A program made the translations under genes and the position numbers. The notes under the pieces were generated by a model. The model saw only the letters and a program-made list of their open reading frames with translations, had not been told where the DNA came from and did no database searches. A DNA stretch of 64,000 nt from Mycobacterium sp. NBC_00419. GTDB lineage: Bacteria > Actinomycetota > Actinomycetes > Mycobacteriales > Mycobacteriaceae. Positions within the stretch are counted from its first letter, which is position 1. Each line of letters begins with the position of its first letter. This document shows positions 36,378 to 43,965 of this stretch, piece after piece. The DNA lies in assembly GCF_036023875.1 (NCBI RefSeq), contig NZ_CP107931.1:4650001-4714000 (forward strand), written 5' to 3'.

Positions 36378-36804
36378 ACCCGCGAGATCGAACGAGTTCA
36401 CGACAGATTCACCTGGGTGAACGACAGTCGTGCGTGGGTGCAACGCCAACCTCGTGTTTGCGGGAAGTATGTGAACCGTTCATTGCTCGGTTGAACGGCC
36501 CAGTGGTGCCGGGCAAACGCTGCCGGAGTGCCGCTGGTGACCTCCCGGGATCAGCCGGGTTCGCGAAAGATGCTGTCCGCGTTGCCTGAACGGCGATCTG
36601 CCGCTTCGTGGCCGCGCGCGGGCCACCGCGCTGACGGGTCGCTTGGTAACGCAGACCGCTGGGGCCGCTGCGGTCGCGGTCAGTTCTGGGATGAGCTGAT
36701 TCGTCGATTCACCGAAGGTCATCCAAGGCGTCTCCGATCAATTGAACGACGGTTCAGGCCGGTGTACTGTCCGGCTGTCCGAAGATGCGGTGACGAGAAG
36801 TTGG
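36378..36804. other. 427-base non-coding interval after glnD
   Basis: No convincing gene: the frames open here (36528-36842 plus, 36480-36722 minus) lack ribosome-binding sites and mycobacterial codon bias. It contains the palindrome TTCACC-TG-GGTGAA (36408-36421), an inverted repeat CCGTTCA (36476-36482) / TGAACGG (36492-36498) that could end the glnD transcript or bind a regulator, and the promoter/operator of the next gene at 36742-36770. Base composition is less GC-rich than its flanks. Confidence 0.6.
36742..36770 (+). promoter_or_regulatory. Promoter with overlapping inverted repeat, PHP/ABC operon
   Basis: TTGAAC (36742-36747) and TACTGT (36765-36770) are 17 bases apart, a good sigma-A-type pair placing the transcript start near 36777, 28 bases before the ATG at 36805. 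TGAAC-GACG-GTTCA (36743-36756) overlaps the -35, as an operator would, and its TGAAC/GTTCA half-sites recur in the inverted repeat at 36476-36498. Confidence 0.6.
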
Positions 36805-37779
36805 ATGCGAATAGTGGCCGGGACCAATGTATTCGAGCGTGACGGAGAGTGGCTGCGGTGCGCCTTGCATGCCCACTCGACCGTCAGTGACGGTGACCTG
36901 CCGCCCAAGGCAGTCGCCCGCCAGTACGCGACCGCGGGGTTCGACGTGCTGGCCCTCACCGATCACTGGCGACTGGCGGTCGTCGACGACGTCCCGGAGA
37001 TCATGATGGTCCCGGCAGCTGAGCTCACTGCCGACCTGGGGCGGGTGGGGTGGACCGCCGATGTTCTGGTGTACGGAATAGGCGACATCCCTGAGGATCC
37101 CGGGGGAGATCGGCGCAACTGGATGATCAACACCGAGGAACACTGGGAGCAGCGCACCTTCCCGTCGGTCGAAGCCTGTGCGGCGTGGGCACATCAGCAG
37201 GGCGGGGTGGCCTACGTCGCGCATCCCTACTGGACGGGGGCGGGCTCGGATGCCTTCGACGATGCCCCACACCTCGCCGGTGTCGAGATCTTCAACGGCA
37301 GTGCGGAATACGAGGGTGGCAGAGGTGACTCGTCGCTGCTGTGGGACGAGGCGTTGCAACGCGGACTTCGGTTGCACGCCATAGCCACCGACGACTCACA
37401 TATGCCGCTGTTCGACATCGGGCTGGCGTGGACGTGGGTCAAGGTCGCCGAACGTACCCCGGGCGCGGTGATCGCGGCCTTGCGTGCCGGTGACTCCTAC
37501 GCGTCGAGCGGACCGAGCATCCTCGAGGTCCACATCACCCACAACGGAGTCGAGGTCCGGTGCTCGCCGGCGAGTTCCATCCACGTGACCACCAGCCGGG
37601 AGAACGGCGCCAGCATCACCGCCGGCCGAGGCGGCCGGCGTACCGGCAAGATCTTCGAGACCGACGGAGCAGGCATGATTACTCACGCGAGAGTCGAATT
37701 GGATACCAGCGGAGTCGAATACGCCCGGGTGCGCGTCGTGGACGCCGCGGGTCATCAGGCTTGGACCAACGTCCTGTGA
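36805..37779 (+). CDS. PHP-domain metallohydrolase, CehA/McbA-like
   Basis: 324 residues. The polymerase-and-histidinol-phosphatase metal site is complete: HxH in LHAHSTVSDGDLP near residue 21, DH in LALTDHW, Glu in PAAELTAD, His in YVAHPYW, Asp/His in ATDDSHMP. The remaining C-terminal ~100 residues form a beta-rich domain (EVRCSPASSIHVTT ... ARVRVVDAAGHQAW), as in CehA-type enzymes. ATG 36805 is chosen because the longer frame begins inside the predicted -35. The stop overlaps the GTG of the solute-binding protein (GTGA), so the hydrolase is the first product of a five-gene importer operon. Likely a phosphoester or ester/amide hydrolase acting on the imported compound; the substrate is unknown. 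Confidence 0.8.
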   Translation: MRIVAGTNVFERDGEWLRCALHAHSTVSDGDLPPKAVARQYATAGFDVLALTDHWRLAVVDDVPEIMMVPAAELTADLGRVGWTADVLVYGIGDIPEDPGGDRRNWMINTEEHWEQRTFPSVEACAAWAHQQGGVAYVAHPYWTGAGSDAFDDAPHLAGVEIFNGSAEYEGGRGDSSLLWDEALQRGLRLHAIATDDSHMPLFDIGLAWTWVKVAERTPGAVIAALRAGDSYASSGPSILEVHITHNGVEVRCSPASSIHVTTSRENGASITAGRGGRRTGKIFETDGAGMITHARVELDTSGVEYARVRVVDAAGHQAWTNVL

Positions 37780-39461
37780 GCGCGCACATCGGCTCGACTA
37801 CGCGCTTCATCGGACGCCGCTTCGGCGCCGTGCTTGCCGCGATCGTAGTGTTGATCGCCGGCTGTTCGTCCAACGGCGCCACGAACACCGACAACGTCCT
37901 CACCATCGGCACGAGCTATTACATCTCGTCGCTCAATCCCTTCGTGGGCATTGAAACTCAAGACAGCACCGCGTATTCAATGCTCTACCCCCAGCTGGTG
38001 GAGTACGGCCCGGGACTGAAGCTGGAAGGTGACTGGGCCAAGGAATGGACCGAATCACCCGACGGCCACACCATCACCTTCAAGCTCAAGGACGGCAAGT
38101 GGTCCGACGGGCAGCCGCTGACAGCTGACGACGCGGTGTGGACCGTCGAGACGATCCTGAAGTACGCCAAGGGGGCGACCGCCTCGATGGCCAAGGTTCT
38201 AGCCGGCGTCGCGTCCGCGGAAGCACCCGATCCCCAGACGCTGGTCATCCACTACGAGCAGCCGATGGGTCCGGCGATGGCCAACCTTGAGCAGATGTAC
38301 ATTCTGCCCAAGCACATCTGGGCGCCCCACGCGACGGGCGACGACGGCTCCGGGCTCACCGACTTCAAACCCGAGCAGCAGTTGCCAGTGGTGGCCGGGG
38401 GTCCGTTCACCATCACCAAGTACGAGGACAAGGGCACGACGGTCTTCACGCCCAACCCGAACTTCTACGGCCCCAAGCCCAATGCCTCGGCGGTCGCGCT
38501 GACCTACTACACCAACCCGACCGCGCTCATCGCCGATCTGAAGGCCGGCCGGCTGGGATTCGTCGACAACATCCCGTTCAAAGATGCCGCTCAGCTGAGG
38601 TCTGTTCCCGGCATCACGGTGACCAGCCAGCCGGGCAACGAGGTCACCAACTTCGGATTCAACTCAAGCGATTCCAAGAAGCTCAACCGTGAGCTGCTAG
38701 ACCCGAAACTGCGTGAAGCATTCGAGTATGCGCTGCCGCGAGAGCAGATCGTCGGGACGGTCTTCGGCGGCGAAGCCAAGCCATGGGCCAGCATCCTGTC
38801 CGGATGGTCCGGCGACTGGGTGAACCCCGACGTGCGACCGTTGCCCAACGATGTCGACAAGGCGAACCAGATGCTGGACTCGCTGGGGTACAAGCGGGGA
38901 CCGGATGGTCTCCGAGTGGTTCCGGCCACCAGCGGTGAGAAGGCACAGCCTGAGCACCCGATGCGCTACAGCGTCATCGTGCCCAACGACACCGACTATG
39001 ACGGGCACCTGCAGTTCACTCTGCTCAAGAGTGCCTTCGGCAAGGTCGGGGTCGATCTCAGCGAGAAAGCCGGTGGTGACGGCACCCAGGCCTACGCGCT
39101 CATCACCGGTCCGGACGGCACGTACGAGGACGCCGACATGTTCACCTGGTACTGGCATCCCTACATCGACCCCGACTTCAACCTCGGGGTGGTCACCACC
39201 AGCGAGTTGAACAACAACAGCGACACCGGTTGGAGCAACCCCGCCTACGACGCCCTCTATGAACAACAGCGCACCACCGTCGATCCGGCGGCGCGGCGCG
39301 CACTGGTGTGGCGGGCACAGGCGGAGATCGCCAACGCCAGGCCCTATATCCAGATTGTGGAGACCAACCTGGTCACGGCCAGCTCGAACGGCTGGACCGG
39401 TTTTGCGCCGGAGTTGTTCACTCTCGGCAAGGCCTACTACACCAGCCCGCGACGGGCTTGA
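37776..39461 (+). CDS. ABC importer solute-binding lipoprotein, family 5
   Basis: 561 residues. A signal peptide with lipobox VLIAGC (Cys near residue 27) predicts a membrane-anchored lipoprotein. The body is a family-5 (DppA/OppA/NikA) binding protein: TFKLKDGKWSDGQPLTADDAVWTVE, LKAGRLGFVDNIP, REAFEYALPREQIV, and the terminal RALVWRAQAEIANARPYI. This class binds oligopeptides, opines, nickel chelates or glycosides. GTG 37776 overlaps the PHP gene by four bases. The next permease starts at the stop (TGATG). The ligand cannot be read from sequence; it is not the M. tuberculosis Dpp locus by position. Confidence 0.88.
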   Translation: MSAHIGSTTRFIGRRFGAVLAAIVVLIAGCSSNGATNTDNVLTIGTSYYISSLNPFVGIETQDSTAYSMLYPQLVEYGPGLKLEGDWAKEWTESPDGHTITFKLKDGKWSDGQPLTADDAVWTVETILKYAKGATASMAKVLAGVASAEAPDPQTLVIHYEQPMGPAMANLEQMYILPKHIWAPHATGDDGSGLTDFKPEQQLPVVAGGPFTITKYEDKGTTVFTPNPNFYGPKPNASAVALTYYTNPTALIADLKAGRLGFVDNIPFKDAAQLRSVPGITVTSQPGNEVTNFGFNSSDSKKLNRELLDPKLREAFEYALPREQIVGTVFGGEAKPWASILSGWSGDWVNPDVRPLPNDVDKANQMLDSLGYKRGPDGLRVVPATSGEKAQPEHPMRYSVIVPNDTDYDGHLQFTLLKSAFGKVGVDLSEKAGGDGTQAYALITGPDGTYEDADMFTWYWHPYIDPDFNLGVVTTSELNNNSDTGWSNPAYDALYEQQRTTVDPAARRALVWRAQAEIANARPYIQIVETNLVTASSNGWTGFAPELFTLGKAYYTSPRRA

Positions 39462-40441
39462 TGGCTGCGCTGAGCCGAATCTGGTTCGCGTTCGTCACCG
39501 TGCTGGTTGCCGCGACGATCAACTTCTTCCTGTTCCGGGTGATGCCGGGCAACGCGGTGTCGGCGCTGCGCTGCCGTGGCTGCACCCCGCAGCTGCGCCA
39601 GGCGCTGCTGGAACGCTACGGCCTTGACGACCCGCTGCCGGTTCAGTTCCTCCGGTACCTCGGGCAGTTGCTGCGGGGTGACCTCGGCATCAGCGTGGCG
39701 ACCGGAAAGCCGGTGTGGCAGGCCATTATCGGTCCGCTGACCAACACCTTGCCCATGTTGGTCGCGGGAACCCTCATCGCGCTCGTGCTGGGAGTCGCCA
39801 GCGGCGTGGTGTCGGCGTGGCGGCGTGGCACCGTGGTGGACGCCGCATCGCAGTGGACCGGACTGGCGTGCTACGCCATGCCCACCCAATGGATCGGCCT
39901 GCTGGTGGTGTTCTACGTCGCGGCCGCGGTGGGTCTGCCTGCGGTGGGTATCCAGAGCGCAACCCTCGATGTTCTGGGTTCGCCCTCCACCTGGGATCTC
40001 CTGGTCGATCGCACGCGGCATCTGGTATTGCCGGCGTTGACTCTAGGCATCGGCTGTTACGGCCAGTACGCGATCGTCGTGCGCTCGGCGATGCTCGAAA
40101 CTCTCGGCGAGGATTACATCTTGACTGCGCGAGCAAAGGGACTGCGAGACTGGACGATCGTGCGTCGTCATGCGTTCGGCAACGCGCTGCTGCCACTGGT
40201 GACCATCGTGGCGTTGTCGGCCGGTTCCGTCGTGGCCGGAGCGATCGTCGTCGAGGACGTGTTCAGTTACCCCGGAATCGGTTTCGCTGCCGTCGACGCG
40301 ATCAACAAGCGGGATTACCCGGTGCTGCAAGGCATATTTCTACTGCTGACATTGGCCGTGGTGGTGGCCAATCTCGTCGCCGATCTGATCTACGTTCGTC
40401 TCGACCCGAGGATCTCCCATGGTCGCGTCGCCGCCGGCTGA
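39461..40441 (+). CDS. ABC importer permease (DppB/OppB type)
   Basis: 326-residue inner-membrane permease with six predicted helices. The conserved N-terminal NFFLFRVMPGNA, the long extracytoplasmic loop typical of DppB, and the EAA loop YILTARAKGLRDWTIVRRHAFGNALLPL that docks the ATPases are all present. It begins one base before the end of the binding-protein gene. Its 3' end overlaps the second permease by 23 bases. Confidence 0.9.
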   Translation: MAALSRIWFAFVTVLVAATINFFLFRVMPGNAVSALRCRGCTPQLRQALLERYGLDDPLPVQFLRYLGQLLRGDLGISVATGKPVWQAIIGPLTNTLPMLVAGTLIALVLGVASGVVSAWRRGTVVDAASQWTGLACYAMPTQWIGLLVVFYVAAAVGLPAVGIQSATLDVLGSPSTWDLLVDRTRHLVLPALTLGIGCYGQYAIVVRSAMLETLGEDYILTARAKGLRDWTIVRRHAFGNALLPLVTIVALSAGSVVAGAIVVEDVFSYPGIGFAAVDAINKRDYPVLQGIFLLLTLAVVVANLVADLIYVRLDPRISHGRVAAG

Positions 40442-41360
40442 GCGCTCCGGTGACACTCCGAAGCGAGCCGGGACCCTGCGCCGTCTGGTTACCGGGAACC
40501 GGCAAACCCTCGTCGGGCTGTGTGCCCTGGGCGCGTTCGCGGTAGTCGCCCTGGCCGCGTCGCTGATCTCGCCGACCGGCGTGGACACCCAGTTCAGCAA
40601 TGGTTTCGCGGCGCCCAGTGGCGCCCATCCGCTCGGGCTGGACGGTGGCGGCTTCGATGTGCTGACTCGACTGGTCCACGGTGCGCGGACCTCGTTGCTG
40701 GTCGGCTCGATCGCGGCGCTGGTCGGCATGCTCATCGGTGGGGTCATCGGCGTGAGCGCGGGCTACTTCGGTGGGCGCACGGATGGGGTGCTGATGCGCA
40801 TCACCGACTATTTCCTGGTCATCCCCGACATCCCGCTGATGATCGTCGCGGCGGCCGTCTTCGGCCAGAACCTGGGCAACATCGTCATCGTGATCGGACT
40901 GGTGTACTGGGCCTCGACGGCCCGGCTGATCCGAGCCCAGGTGCTGTCGGTGCGCGAGCGCACCTTCGTACGCCGGGTGGAGGCTATGGGGGCCTCGCCG
41001 CTGTCGGTGCTGTCCCGCCATGTGGTGCCGCATGTGATGCCGCTGCTGGTGGCCAACACCGTGTTGATGGTGGCCAATGCGATTTTCGCCGAAACTTACA
41101 TCAGCTTCCTGGGTTTGGGCGACCCGTCGGTGGTGTCGTGGGGACGGATGATCCAGGACGCGCTCGACCAGGGAGCGGTGCTCGCCGGCGCCTGGTGGGT
41201 CGTGCTGCCGCCCGGCTTGGCAGTGACTGCGGTCGTGCTGGCAGCCACTGTCGCAGGGCAGGGCATGGAGGACACGCTCAACCCGCGGCTGCGGGTCGGG
41301 CACCTGGCGGTGCGCAGGTTTCGGGTGCGCCCCCATTACGGCCGGCTGGAGTCCGCATGA
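40419..41360 (+). CDS. ABC importer permease (DppC/OppC type)
   Basis: 313 residues with an N-terminal OppC-like segment, a DVLTRLVHGARTSL motif and the EAA loop RTFVRRVEAMGASPLSVLSRHVVPHV, followed by GLGDPSVVSWGRMI near the C-terminus. Partner of the upstream permease. ATG 40419 lies inside the 3' end of that gene. The downstream ATPase starts in an ATGA overlap. Confidence 0.9.
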   Translation: MVASPPAERSGDTPKRAGTLRRLVTGNRQTLVGLCALGAFAVVALAASLISPTGVDTQFSNGFAAPSGAHPLGLDGGGFDVLTRLVHGARTSLLVGSIAALVGMLIGGVIGVSAGYFGGRTDGVLMRITDYFLVIPDIPLMIVAAAVFGQNLGNIVIVIGLVYWASTARLIRAQVLSVRERTFVRRVEAMGASPLSVLSRHVVPHVMPLLVANTVLMVANAIFAETYISFLGLGDPSVVSWGRMIQDALDQGAVLAGAWWVVLPPGLAVTAVVLAATVAGQGMEDTLNPRLRVGHLAVRRFRVRPHYGRLESA

Positions 41361-42325
41361 CGCAACCGCTGTTAGAGGTGCGTGACCTACACGTGGACTT
41401 CGACTCCGGTGGAAAGCGAGTCACTGCGGTTCGCGGTGTCACCTTCGGCCTCGAGCCACGCAGTCGGCTGGGGATCGTGGGGGAGTCGGGGTGCGGCAAG
41501 TCCACGGCGGTGCTCGCGGTGATGGGACTGGTGCCGCCCAACGCCGAAGTGTCCGGACAGGTCCTGCTCGACGGCGTCGACATTCTGGCCGGTGGCGATG
41601 CCGGTATGCGCAGGCACCGCTGGCGCGACATCGCGATGGTGTTCCAGGGCGCGATGAACGCCTTCAATCCGGTACGCACTATCGGTGAGCAGATCGCCGA
41701 GCCGATCCGGTTGCACCAGAAGGCAACCCGGCGCCAAGCCGGCGACCGTGTCGGGTCACTGCTCGAACTGGTGGGCATCGACTCCCGGCGGGCATCCCAC
41801 TATCCGCACGAGTTCTCCGGGGGCATGAGGCAACGGGCCGCGCTGGCCATGGCGCTGGCGTGCGGACCGAAAGTGCTTCTGGCCGACGAGCCGACCACCG
41901 CGCTGGATGTGATCGTCCAAGCCGAGATCCTCGATCTGCTGCGCAACGTGACCGACGAGCTCGGTATCGCCCTGGTGTTCATCAGCCACGACCTGCCGGC
42001 TGTTGCGCAGGTCGCCGAACGGGTGGCGGTGATGTACGCCGGTCGCATCGTCGAGGAGGGCCCGGTGGACATGCTGCTCGCCGCCGCACGTCATCCCTAC
42101 ACAGCCGCACTGGTGTCGGCGATCCCGAACCCGCTGTCCGACAAGGGGATGCGCTCCATCGCTGGTGACCCGCCCCGGCTCGACGCGCCGGTATCGGGAT
42201 GTTCCTTTGCGCCGCGCTGCCCGTCGGTGCTCGATATCTGCCGAGACGTCGAACCCGCCAACGTCGACGATGGCATCGGTTCGGTCGCCTGCCACCTCGC
42301 TTCGCCCACGCTGGCGTCGCGATGA
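41357..42325 (+). CDS. ABC importer ATPase (DppD/OppD type)
   Basis: 322-residue ATP-binding subunit: Walker A GESGCGKST near residue 43, signature FSGGMRQRAALAMA, Walker B VLLADEPTTALD, and the H-loop FISHDL. The C-terminal oligopeptide-transporter extension contains CSFAPRCPSVLDIC ... ACH, a cysteine motif that binds a [4Fe-4S] cluster in some family members. It overlaps both neighbours by four bases. Confidence 0.92.
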   Translation: MTQPLLEVRDLHVDFDSGGKRVTAVRGVTFGLEPRSRLGIVGESGCGKSTAVLAVMGLVPPNAEVSGQVLLDGVDILAGGDAGMRRHRWRDIAMVFQGAMNAFNPVRTIGEQIAEPIRLHQKATRRQAGDRVGSLLELVGIDSRRASHYPHEFSGGMRQRAALAMALACGPKVLLADEPTTALDVIVQAEILDLLRNVTDELGIALVFISHDLPAVAQVAERVAVMYAGRIVEEGPVDMLLAAARHPYTAALVSAIPNPLSDKGMRSIAGDPPRLDAPVSGCSFAPRCPSVLDICRDVEPANVDDGIGSVACHLASPTLASR

Positions 42326-43353
42326 CTGCGCCGCTGCTGGAGGTGTCCGACCTGACCGTGCGTTACCCCGTCGGGCCGGCCGGCATTCTGCGCCGTCGGC
42401 GGTCGGTGGTGCACGCTGTCGAACAGGTATCGCTGACCGTGAATGCCGGTGAGGTTGTGGCCCTGGTTGGCGAATCAGCTTGCGGTAAAAGCACTGTCGC
42501 ACGGACGATCGCGGGGGTTCAGCGGCCCAGCGGGGGCCGGGTCGTGTTCGAGGGCGCCGATCTGACCCGGCTTCGCGGTTCTGCGCTGCAGCCCTATCGC
42601 CGGGCGATTCAACTGGTCCATCAGGACCCGTACGACTCGCTCGATCCGCGGATGACGGTGCGCTCGATCGTCGACGAAGGCCTGCGAATCCACCACATCC
42701 CCCGGCGTGAGCGGGACGCGGCGGTCTACGCCGCGCTGGAGCGGGTCGGGCTGGGGCCGGCGGCGTGGGTCCTTGACCGGTTTCCCCACGAGTTGTCCGG
42801 CGGGCAGCGTCAACGAGTGGCCATCGCGGCAGCGGTTGCGCTGAAGCCGCGGCTGTTGTTGGCCGACGAACCGGTGTCCATGCTCGACGTCTCGGTCCGG
42901 GCCAGCGTGCTCAACCTGATCGGGGGTCTGCGCGACGACGGGTTGGGAGTGCTGTTCATCACCCACGATCTCGCCAGCGCCGTCTTGCTGGCCGACCGCG
43001 TCGCGGTGATGTATTTCGGGCGGATCGTGGAGGTGGGTTCCGCCGACGAGGTACTGCGTCGGCCGGCCCACCCCTACACCAGGGCGCTGCTGTCGGCGAT
43101 GCCCTCGCCCGACCCGGCGGTACGGACCCGGCCGGAGGTCGTACGTGGTGAGCTGCCCGATGCCCAGCGGCCACCGGCCGGATGCGCGTTCGCCTCGCGA
43201 TGCCCACTGGTGCGGACCGGGTGCGAGCAGACTGTCCCGTCCCTGTCGGCGGTGGGAGTCGGTCACCGTGCGGCCTGTTTCGTGACGGCCCGCTCAGCCG
43301 ACGAGGCTCGCGACGGTGCGCGCCCAGCCGTGCAGCCGCGGATCACGCAGTGA
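42322..43353 (+). CDS. ABC importer ATPase (DppF/OppF type)
   Basis: 343-residue second ATPase. Walker A reads GESACGKST near residue 53 (Ala in place of the usual third Gly, but still GxxxxGKS), signature LSGGQRQRVAIAAA, Walker B LLLADEPVSMLD, and a C-terminal CAFASRCPLVRTGC ... AC motif. Last gene of the operon. Its final 60 bases overlap the 3' end of the convergent phosphatase gene. Confidence 0.91.
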   Translation: MTAPLLEVSDLTVRYPVGPAGILRRRRSVVHAVEQVSLTVNAGEVVALVGESACGKSTVARTIAGVQRPSGGRVVFEGADLTRLRGSALQPYRRAIQLVHQDPYDSLDPRMTVRSIVDEGLRIHHIPRRERDAAVYAALERVGLGPAAWVLDRFPHELSGGQRQRVAIAAAVALKPRLLLADEPVSMLDVSVRASVLNLIGGLRDDGLGVLFITHDLASAVLLADRVAVMYFGRIVEVGSADEVLRRPAHPYTRALLSAMPSPDPAVRTRPEVVRGELPDAQRPPAGCAFASRCPLVRTGCEQTVPSLSAVGVGHRAACFVTARSADEARDGARPAVQPRITQ

Positions 43354-43965
43354 GTCGGTGATGAAATCCCCGTCGAGGTCGGCCGCGCTGTCCGACGGCA
43401 CGGCTACCACGTAGGCACCCGCGGCACGGGCCGCCGCAACGCCGGTGGCCGAGTCCTCGAATGCGACGCCTTCGGCGGCCGCCGCACCGAGCCGGGCGAA
43501 GGCGGTCAGATACAGCTCAGGGTGCGGCTTGGGGTCGGCCACCTCGTCGGCCGCGACGGTCACCGCGAAATGGCCGGCGATTCCGCCTGAGTCGAGAATC
43601 ATGTCGAGGATCGCGCGATTGCTGTTGGAGGCGATGGCGAGAGGAAACCGCTGCGAAAGGGCACCCAGAAGTTCACCCGCCCCCGCCATCTGTGCCACAC
43701 GGTCGCCGAGCTCGGCTTCGACGAGCTCGATCAACGGGTCACGCAACCGGGTACCGTGGGCCGGCTGACCGATCAGCGCGGCGATGGCGTCACAGATGTC
43801 CTCGACGGTGCGGCCCAGCAGCAGGGTGCGCTCACGCTCACCGAAAGGCCGGCCGTAGCGGGCCAGCAGTGCCGCCTCGGCACGCGCCCAGCAGCTCTCG
43901 GTATCCAGCAGCAGGCCGTCGCAGTCGAACACGATTCCACTCACCGCTGACGGCAGCTCGCTCAC
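43294..43965 (-). CDS. HAD-superfamily phosphatase, beta-phosphoglucomutase-like
   Basis: 223-residue HAD hydrolase. Motif I VFDCDGLLLDTE (nucleophile and general acid Asp near residues 14 and 16), motif II ASNSNR, motif III Lys in DPKPHPELY, and motif IV FEDSATG are all intact, with an alpha-helical cap after motif I. GTG start at 43965; TACCCT eight bases upstream could be its -10. It converges with and overlaps the importer's last gene by 60 bases, leaving no room for a terminator. Confidence 0.85.
   Translation of the reverse strand: MSELPSAVSGIVFDCDGLLLDTESCWARAEAALLARYGRPFGERERTLLLGRTVEDICDAIAALIGQPAHGTRLRDPLIELVEAELGDRVAQMAGAGELLGALSQRFPLAIASNSNRAILDMILDSGGIAGHFAVTVAADEVADPKPHPELYLTAFARLGAAAAEGVAFEDSATGVAAARAAGAYVVAVPSDSAADLDGDFITDSLRDPRLHGWARTVASLVG

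What the first reader, a model, noticed from the sequence alone, without database searches (positions are those of the whole stretch)
36742..43353. Operon coupling a CehA-like PHP hydrolase to a full family-5 ABC importer
Sequence: a sigma-A-like promoter, a PHP protein with a complete metal site, then binding lipoprotein, two permeases and two ATPases, each overlapping its neighbour by 1-23 bases. Family knowledge: family-5 importers take up peptides, opines, glycosides or metal chelates, and PHP/CehA enzymes hydrolyse phosphoesters or carbamate/amide bonds. Inference: the cell imports a compound and cleaves it with a dedicated hydrolase. The operon sits between glnD and ffh, where M. tuberculosis has no such transporter, so it is an accessory scavenging system whose substrate is not evident, possibly nitrogen- or phosphorus-containing.
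Basis: partly seen in the sequence, partly recalled or inferred. Interest (0 to 1): 0.75.

Follow-up and report, generated by a model that had tools for sequence, protein, structure and literature searches.

The report
Phosphate-starvation importer–hydrolase cassette in mycobacteria
A gene cassette that a few mycobacteria carry between two housekeeping genes joins a family-5 ABC importer to a PHP-family hydrolase and sometimes a HAD-family phosphatase, and its control region here holds the DNA motif that also lies before the cell's phosphate-uptake genes pstS and pitA, so it likely serves to import a phosphate ester and is predicted to free its phosphate when phosphate is scarce.

Summary
Six overlapping genes (PHP hydrolase, binding lipoprotein, two permeases, two ATPases) form one cassette between glnD and ffh. 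PHP and binding-protein orthologues occur in the same 7 genomes of the 198 of the genus searched. The start codon is 36805 or 36814, not 36742, which lies in the -35 element.

Two results point to phosphorus. (1) The control region carries GTTCAC-N5-ATTCAC at 36396-36412, an 11-bp-spaced PHO box. The pattern occurs 6 times in the 5.6-Mb genome; two other copies lie before pstS and pitA. Five of 7 carrier genomes have an exact copy in this control region; 27 of 27 cassette-free glnD loci score low. (2) A HAD-family phosphatase behind the operon was found in 3 of 196 genomes of the genus, all carriers.

I read it as a Pho-regulated uptake-and-cleavage system for a phosphate ester, working like the agrocinopine (acc) system but with a PHP enzyme. 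Regulation, substrate and catalysis are inferred. Against it: here the box lies 329 bp before the promoter, it is weak or ambiguous in 4 of 9 loci, and most carriers show no HAD gene.

The parts
36396..36412 (+). PHO box GTTCAC-N5-ATTCAC (11-bp-spaced direct repeat)
   Evidence: one of 6 matches in the genome, two others before pstS and pitA; PWM 18.3, best place of the 64-kb window
36378..36804 (.). control region between glnD stop and PHP start; not seen in cassette-free loci
36742..36770 (+). promoter TTGAAC -17- TACTGT, with inverted repeat TGAAC-gacg-GTTCA (36743-36756) over the -35, possible repressor site
   Evidence: conserved in 8 of 8 mycobacterial loci aligned; consensus scan alone finds nothing
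36805..37779 (+). PHP-domain metallohydrolase, CehA/McbA family, no signal peptide seen (start ATG 36805 or GTG 36814)
   Evidence: model pLDDT 94.3; best folds PHP proteins 3e38, 2anu
37776..39461 (+). family-5 solute-binding lipoprotein (lipobox IAGC, by eye)
   Evidence: model matches SBP5 structures
39461..40441 (+). permease 1
40419..41360 (+). permease 2
41357..42325 (+). ATPase 1 (OppD-like)
42322..43353 (+). ATPase 2 (OppF-like)
43294..43965 (-). HAD-IA hydrolase (sugar-phosphatase-like), convergent with the operon; membership in the cassette probable, not certain
   Evidence: PF13419; TIGR01509 over cut-off, nearest solved chain 1te2; at E <= 1e-30 found only in cassette carriers

Best explanation
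The cassette is likely a phosphate-starvation-controlled scavenging system in which the family-5 importer is predicted to take up an organic phosphate ester (probably a diester), the probably cytosolic PHP enzyme would cut it, and the HAD enzyme, where present, would likely free the phosphate. Steps: (1) when phosphate is low, phosphorylated RegX3 would bind the PHO box at 36396-36412 and raise transcription (inferred from the motif); (2) the lipoprotein would capture the compound outside the membrane and the two permeases and two ATPases would import it (family-level inference); (3) the PHP protein has a conserved metal site and no visible signal peptide, so it would act in the cytosol on a phosphoester (inferred); (4) the HAD protein would remove phosphate from the resulting monoester (inferred). 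The inverted repeat over the -35 could be the site of a second, substrate-sensing repressor (speculative). Shown directly: gene content, order, co-occurrence, motif positions, motif sharing with pstS and pitA.
For: PHO box: GTTCAYNNNNNRTTCAY has 6 matches in the genome against 1 for the reversed pattern. One other starts 116 bp before the pstS reading frame (TIGR00975 over cut-off), one 96 bp before a PHO4-family phosphate transporter (pitA), three at other genes. In the seven carrier genomes together there are 29 matches (reversed control 5); 5 of the 29 are in the cassette's control region, 3 before pstS, 3 before pitA. A matrix built from the 24 sites outside cassettes gives, as best score in the control region, 18.3 (window), 15.7, 13.5, 12.8 and 23.5 in five loci and 7.1-14.3 in the other four; expected chance hits per region 0.000-0.035. 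The 450 bp behind glnD in 27 cassette-free loci score at most 3.2. Papers: GTTCACnnnnnGTTCaC footprinted at pit and present at pstS of Microlunatus (PMC6754071, passages); PHO box = 11-nt direct repeats, GTTCACC in Streptomyces (PMC4415409, passages); RegX3 controls pstS and phoA in M. smegmatis (PMC12301784, passages). HAD hydrolase: 3 of 196 genus genomes at E <= 1e-30, all carriers and at this place; a 58% relative lies 2.3 kb behind the cassette in MAG L013. PHP-fold phosphodiesterase precedent: Sb-PDE (PMC5460133, passages).
Against: In the window the box ends 329 bp before the -35, far for an OmpR-type activator, and no conserved -10 follows it. In L012 (7.1), L014 (8.3) and L015 (10.0) the box is weak: best scores by chance reach 9.6 in 4- to 19-kb stretches and 16.4 in one of ten 13- to 20-kb stretches of distant relatives. 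In L013 the match (14.3) overlaps the promoter-type palindrome. The pattern was chosen after seeing the window's element, and four of the five exact copies are orthologous. The RegX3 site as worded in PMC7525159 (inverted GTGAAC repeat, 5-7 apart) is not met. No HAD match was reported for the other four carriers, and the gene is on the opposite strand. CehA/McbA enzymes are known as carbamate hydrolases. In 7 loci of distant PHP relatives (L058-L064) the best matrix match is not within 3 kb of the PHP gene (only the best place was looked at). Relatives of the binding protein (38-53%) have no PHP in 7 of 7 loci fetched, several of them short.
Confidence: 0.55

Rival explanations
1. Carbon/nitrogen scavenging: the importer takes up a peptide, amide or carbamate that the PHP enzyme hydrolyses as CehA/McbA enzymes do; the PHO box is incidental or gives only general starvation control.
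For: NF038032 is named for carbaryl hydrolases, which cleave carbamate esters (PMC8292978, passages); many solved SBP5 relatives are peptide binders; the same motif also lies at genes without an evident phosphate role (FadD-like, DUF3349-like).
Against: No peptide-importer equivalog cut-off is reached. In a hand alignment the loop that holds the Asp of DppA (GWTGDNGDPD; role recalled) reads TWYWHPYIDPD. The HAD gene and the motif shared with pstS and pitA are unexplained.
Confidence: 0.24
2. Opine-like or metal-chelate uptake: the importer takes up a plant- or microbe-made conjugate and the PHP enzyme trims it, with no phosphorus role.
For: Nearest structures by sequence or fold include AapF (HEHEAA), AgaA (agropinic acid) and Ni-binding NikA/NikZ.
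Against: Same PHO box and HAD evidence; fold similarity inside SBP5 does not tell the ligand.
Confidence: 0.1
3. The PHO box serves nitrogen/phosphate cross-talk at the amt-glnB-glnD end, or an unannotated RNA in the 427-bp region, not the operon.
For: It lies 18 bp behind the glnD stop and 392 bp before the PHP start.
Against: 27 of 27 cassette-free glnD loci lack it; in L037 it sits next to the proximal promoter, in the other orientation; no Rfam match.
Confidence: 0.11

Closest known systems
Agrocinopine catabolism (acc) system of Agrobacterium (AccA binding protein, importer, AccF phosphodiesterase, AccG phosphatase)
   Same: Family-5 importer plus phosphoester cleavage plus phosphatase (PMC4526662, passages); [quoted passage not shown]
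   Different: The hydrolase is a PHP enzyme; no repressor gene in the cassette; chromosomal, in a mycobacterium; substrate unknown.
CehA/McbA carbamate hydrolases
   Same: NF038032 domain over cut-off and PHP metal motifs.
   Different: About 320 aa without visible signal peptide, whereas carbaryl hydrolases are described as carrying export signals; neighbours are an importer, not a carbaryl pathway.
Sb-PDE, PHP-family phosphodiesterase of Sphingobium TCM1
   Same: PHP-domain enzyme; shows that such a protein can hydrolyse phosphodiesters.
   Different: Secreted, mature form 413 aa; sequence relation not tested here.
Dpp/Opp and Nik family-5 importers
   Same: Same five-protein architecture and binding-protein fold.
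   Different: No equivalog cut-off met; different pocket loop by hand alignment.

Membership tests
CehA/McbA family metallohydrolase | NF038032 domain above the curated cut-off | tested here: met
   103.1 bits, cut-off 80
CehA/McbA family metallohydrolase | PHP metal-binding motifs | tested here: met
   H21, H23, D28, H53, E72, H139, D196, H198 (numbering of A1) in 35 or 36 of 36; position 85 is D/E in 36 of 36
CehA/McbA family metallohydrolase | carbamate-ester hydrolysis | not testable with these tools
   needs enzyme assay
Family-5 (peptide/nickel type) ABC importer | SBP_bac_5 protein, two BPD_transp_1 permeases, two ABC_tran/oligo_HPY ATPases in one operon | tested here: met
Dipeptide/oligopeptide importer (Dpp, Opp) | equivalog score of binding protein or permeases | tested here: not met
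   all listed equivalog scores are below their NCBIfam cut-offs
Pho (RegX3) regulon member | 11-bp-spaced GTTCAC direct repeat as before pstS and pitA of the same genome | tested here: met
Pho (RegX3) regulon member | inverted GTGAAC repeat 5-7 bases apart, the RegX3 site as worded in PMC7525159 | tested here: not met
   ATTCAC (36407-36412) and GTGAAC (36417-36422) are 4 apart and face the other way
Pho (RegX3) regulon member | box close to the promoter | tested here: inconclusive
   329 bp upstream in the window; close in L037
Pho (RegX3) regulon member | induction at low phosphate | not testable with these tools
   needs RNA measurements
acc (agrocinopine) operon | SBP5 importer with a phosphatase and a phosphoester-cleaving enzyme | tested here: inconclusive
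   importer and HAD family protein present, PHP in place of AccF, activities unknown
acc (agrocinopine) operon | AccR-type repressor in the cluster | tested here: not met
   the seven genes of 36805-43965 are all assigned, none is a regulator
acc (agrocinopine) operon | sequence relation of the binding protein to AccA beyond SBP5 level | tested here: not met
   AccA 4ra1 only E 9.9e-8, below many other SBP5 proteins

The most novel reading that the evidence does not exclude
A mycobacterial counterpart of the agrocinopine system: a Pho-regulated cassette that imports an intact phosphodiester through a family-5 importer and strips it inside the cell with a PHP phosphodiesterase and a HAD phosphatase. 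This would give the CehA/McbA family a phosphorus-acquiring role and reveal a class of organic phosphorus that these bacteria eat whole.
Probability: 0.4. Interest if true: 0.72.

Novelty: new variant of a known kind. Interest (0 to 1): 0.55.

Why it matters
Family-5 importers are often annotated as peptide transporters, and for small CehA/McbA proteins without an export signal I know of no substrate (recalled). A PHO box in front of such a pair turns an open substrate question into a short list (phosphate esters) and a single growth test. If true, part of the 'peptide importer' annotation in actinobacteria is really organic-phosphorus uptake. Four searches of the open library for a link between CehA/PHP enzymes, importers and phosphate control listed no paper on such a system among the rows shown (listings only, capped).

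Tried and rejected

Recalled, from no call: the role of the Asp in DppA, the nine-ligand PHP metal site, the lack of a known substrate for small CehA/McbA proteins.
Full report
OBSERVATION. The window lies at 4,650,001-4,714,000 of a 5.6-Mb single-contig genome; the nearest cassettes found are mostly in Mycobacterium/Mycolicibacterium records. Between glnD (ends 36377) and ffh (starts 44038) lie six + strand genes: a PHP protein, an SBP_bac_5 lipoprotein, two permeases and two ATPases, with overlaps of 4, 1, 23, 4 and 4 bases. A HAD-IA hydrolase gene runs the other way at 43294-43965 and overlaps the end of the last ATPase gene.

CO-CONSERVATION. PHP orthologues (80-88% identity besides the own copy) occur in 7 of 198 genomes of the genus, own included; 13 more have only a 27-30% relative. 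Binding-protein orthologues (81-91%) occur in the same 7 of 198; 4 further genomes have only a 38-39% paralogue. In the order, 1 of 298 genomes matches at E <= 1e-20, the own one. In the phylum, 8 of 396 match at E <= 1e-30, own included, the others at 32-48%. Gene order is the same in the five related loci that show all six genes (L009, L010, L011, L013, L014), and the cassette lies behind glnD in every Mycobacterium locus that reaches that far. In 27 cassette-free loci among the 30 best glnD matches fetched (30 of the 53 genomes matched, of 78 searched), ffh follows glnD within about 25-140 bp in 18, about 1 kb later in 1, and is not in the fetched stretch in 8. On a glnD tree of 34 rows the cassette is confined to one group of 13 rows (7 with it) and needs 4 changes: one gain with losses is the simple reading. 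MAG SZAS-8 (L013, titled only 'Actinomycetota bacterium'; PHP 75%, SBP 77%) has the cassette without glnD or ffh in the 21 kb fetched.

CONTROL REGION. The 427 bp between glnD and the PHP gene were seen only with the cassette, and the three lake-MAG loci have a shorter version. Just behind glnD is GTTCACGACAGATTCAC (36396-36412). The pattern GTTCAYNNNNNRTTCAY is found 6 times in the genome (reversed control 1). The other five lie before pstS (TIGR00975, 295 bits, cut-off 205), a PHO4-family transporter (293 bits, cut-off 33.7; pitA), an AMP-binding enzyme, and two proteins without Pfam match. Searching the other six carriers gave 23 more (reversed control 4). Of all 29: pstS 3, pitA 3, FadD-like 5, cassette 5, a DUF3349-like gene other than the one by pitA 4, a 224-aa secreted-looking protein 3, a ribA2-like gene 2, unassigned 4 (gene names other than pstS, pitA and the AMP-binding enzyme are by eye or by similarity to the own genome's copies). 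A matrix from the 24 sites outside cassettes was run on nine cassette control regions from nine genomes: window 18.3, L009 15.7, L010 13.5, L011 12.8, L037 23.5 (strong), L013 14.3 (ambiguous, overlaps a palindrome), L015 10.0, L014 8.3, L012 7.1 (weak). The 450 bp behind glnD in the 27 cassette-free loci reach at most 3.2. Chance level: seven other SBP5 loci of the genome reach 9.6 at best anywhere in about 4 kb (the eighth, L008, is the cassette's own binding-protein locus and scores 1.2 because its stretch starts behind the box; three further SBP5 genes have no locus and were not scored), four paralogue loci of 19 kb reach 9.6, ten loci of 13-20 kb with distant relatives reach 6.7-16.4, and the second-best place of the window itself is 12.8. 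So the window and L037 stand out clearly, L009-L011 by score plus conserved position, the rest do not on score alone. Dropping one gene family at a time from the matrix still scores pstS at 19, pitA at 22-23, FadD-like at 9.9-22.5. The motif equals the site footprinted in Microlunatus (GTTCACnnnnnGTTCaC at pit, also at pstS; PMC6754071) and the Streptomyces PHO box (PMC4415409), and fits the RegX3 sequence quoted in PMC7884335 (passages). PMC7525159 words the RegX3 site as an inverted GTGAAC repeat with 5-7 bases between (passages); in the window the second repeat unit (36407-36412) and GTGAAC (36417-36422) are inverted the other way round with 4 between, so that wording is not met.

ENZYMES. 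The PHP model is confident (pLDDT 94.3); closest solved folds are PHP proteins 3e38 and 2anu, both called predicted phosphoesterases, then others including BAD_1165, EndoQ, RNase AM and 2yb1. The metal residues are conserved. The N-terminus shows no hydrophobic stretch, so the enzyme is probably cytosolic. The binding-protein model (pLDDT 83.8) matches SBP5 structures of many ligands, including AapF, AgaA, DppA, NikA and AccA with agrocinopine A or glucose-2-phosphate; this does not choose a ligand. The HAD protein is nearest to sugar phosphatases by sequence (1te2; TIGR01509 over cut-off, no equivalog reached). It was found in 3 of 196 genus genomes at E <= 1e-30 (G000, G009, G156), all carriers and all at this place; no match was reported for the other four carriers, and in L010 ffh follows the last ATPase gene directly. 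A 58% relative lies 2.3 kb behind the cassette of L013, with a FAD monooxygenase-like gene between.

MECHANISM. Taken together: phosphate-starvation control, import, PHP cleavage, HAD dephosphorylation where present. This works like the acc system of Agrobacterium, where a family-5 importer, a phosphodiesterase (AccF) and a phosphatase (AccG) serve agrocinopine use (PMC4526662, passages). It is not a member: no AccR, a different enzyme, no close AccA relation. Phosphoester cleavage by a PHP protein has precedent in Sb-PDE (PMC5460133, passages).

WEAK POINTS. Distance of the box from the promoter; weak boxes in three carriers; HAD found in 3 of 7 carriers only; pattern chosen after the fact; family name points to carbamates; no expression or biochemical data. 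Confidence in the phosphorus reading 0.55; in a coupled import-and-hydrolyse cassette, apart from substrate, about 0.9.

Noticed in passing
L117, L121, L124, L134, L143 (pattern starts 43-56 bp before the gene): A FadD-like AMP-binding enzyme has a PHO-box match 43-56 bp upstream in 5 of 7 carrier genomes: an unexpected candidate member of the mycobacterial Pho regulon.
   Followed up: partly
L118, L125, L132, L119, L128, L129, L137: DUF3349-type small proteins (named by eye) lie beside PHO-box matches twice over: divergent from pitA in 3 genomes, and a second, 33-38% similar gene in 4.
   Followed up: partly
L122, L142: A ribA2-like gene (riboflavin biosynthesis, by eye) has a PHO-box match about 190-220 bp upstream in two genomes.
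   Followed up: no
window 36743-36756 and the same place in L009, L010, L011, L012, L014, L015, L037: Inverted repeat TGAAC..GTTCA or a variant of it (perfect CTGAACGTTCAG in L012 and L015) over the -35 of the proximal promoter; looks like a repressor site, with no regulator gene in the cassette.
   Followed up: partly
L059, L060, L061, L062, L064, L065: Distant PHP relatives (32-48%) elsewhere in the phylum lie beside other SBP5 importers, and once beside what looks by eye like a sugar-type importer: small CehA/McbA proteins may generally partner importers.
   Followed up: partly
L066, L067, L068, L069: The 36-39% binding-protein paralogue of other mycobacteria is divergent from its importer genes; in the four loci, to varying extent, genes that look by eye like a class-III aminotransferase, FGGY kinase, decarboxylase-like protein and beta-lactamase-like protein lie nearby, with no PHP gene.
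   Followed up: no
window 2108 (- strand): Second-best PHO-box score of the window (12.8, GTTCACCTGCCGGTTAT).
   Followed up: no
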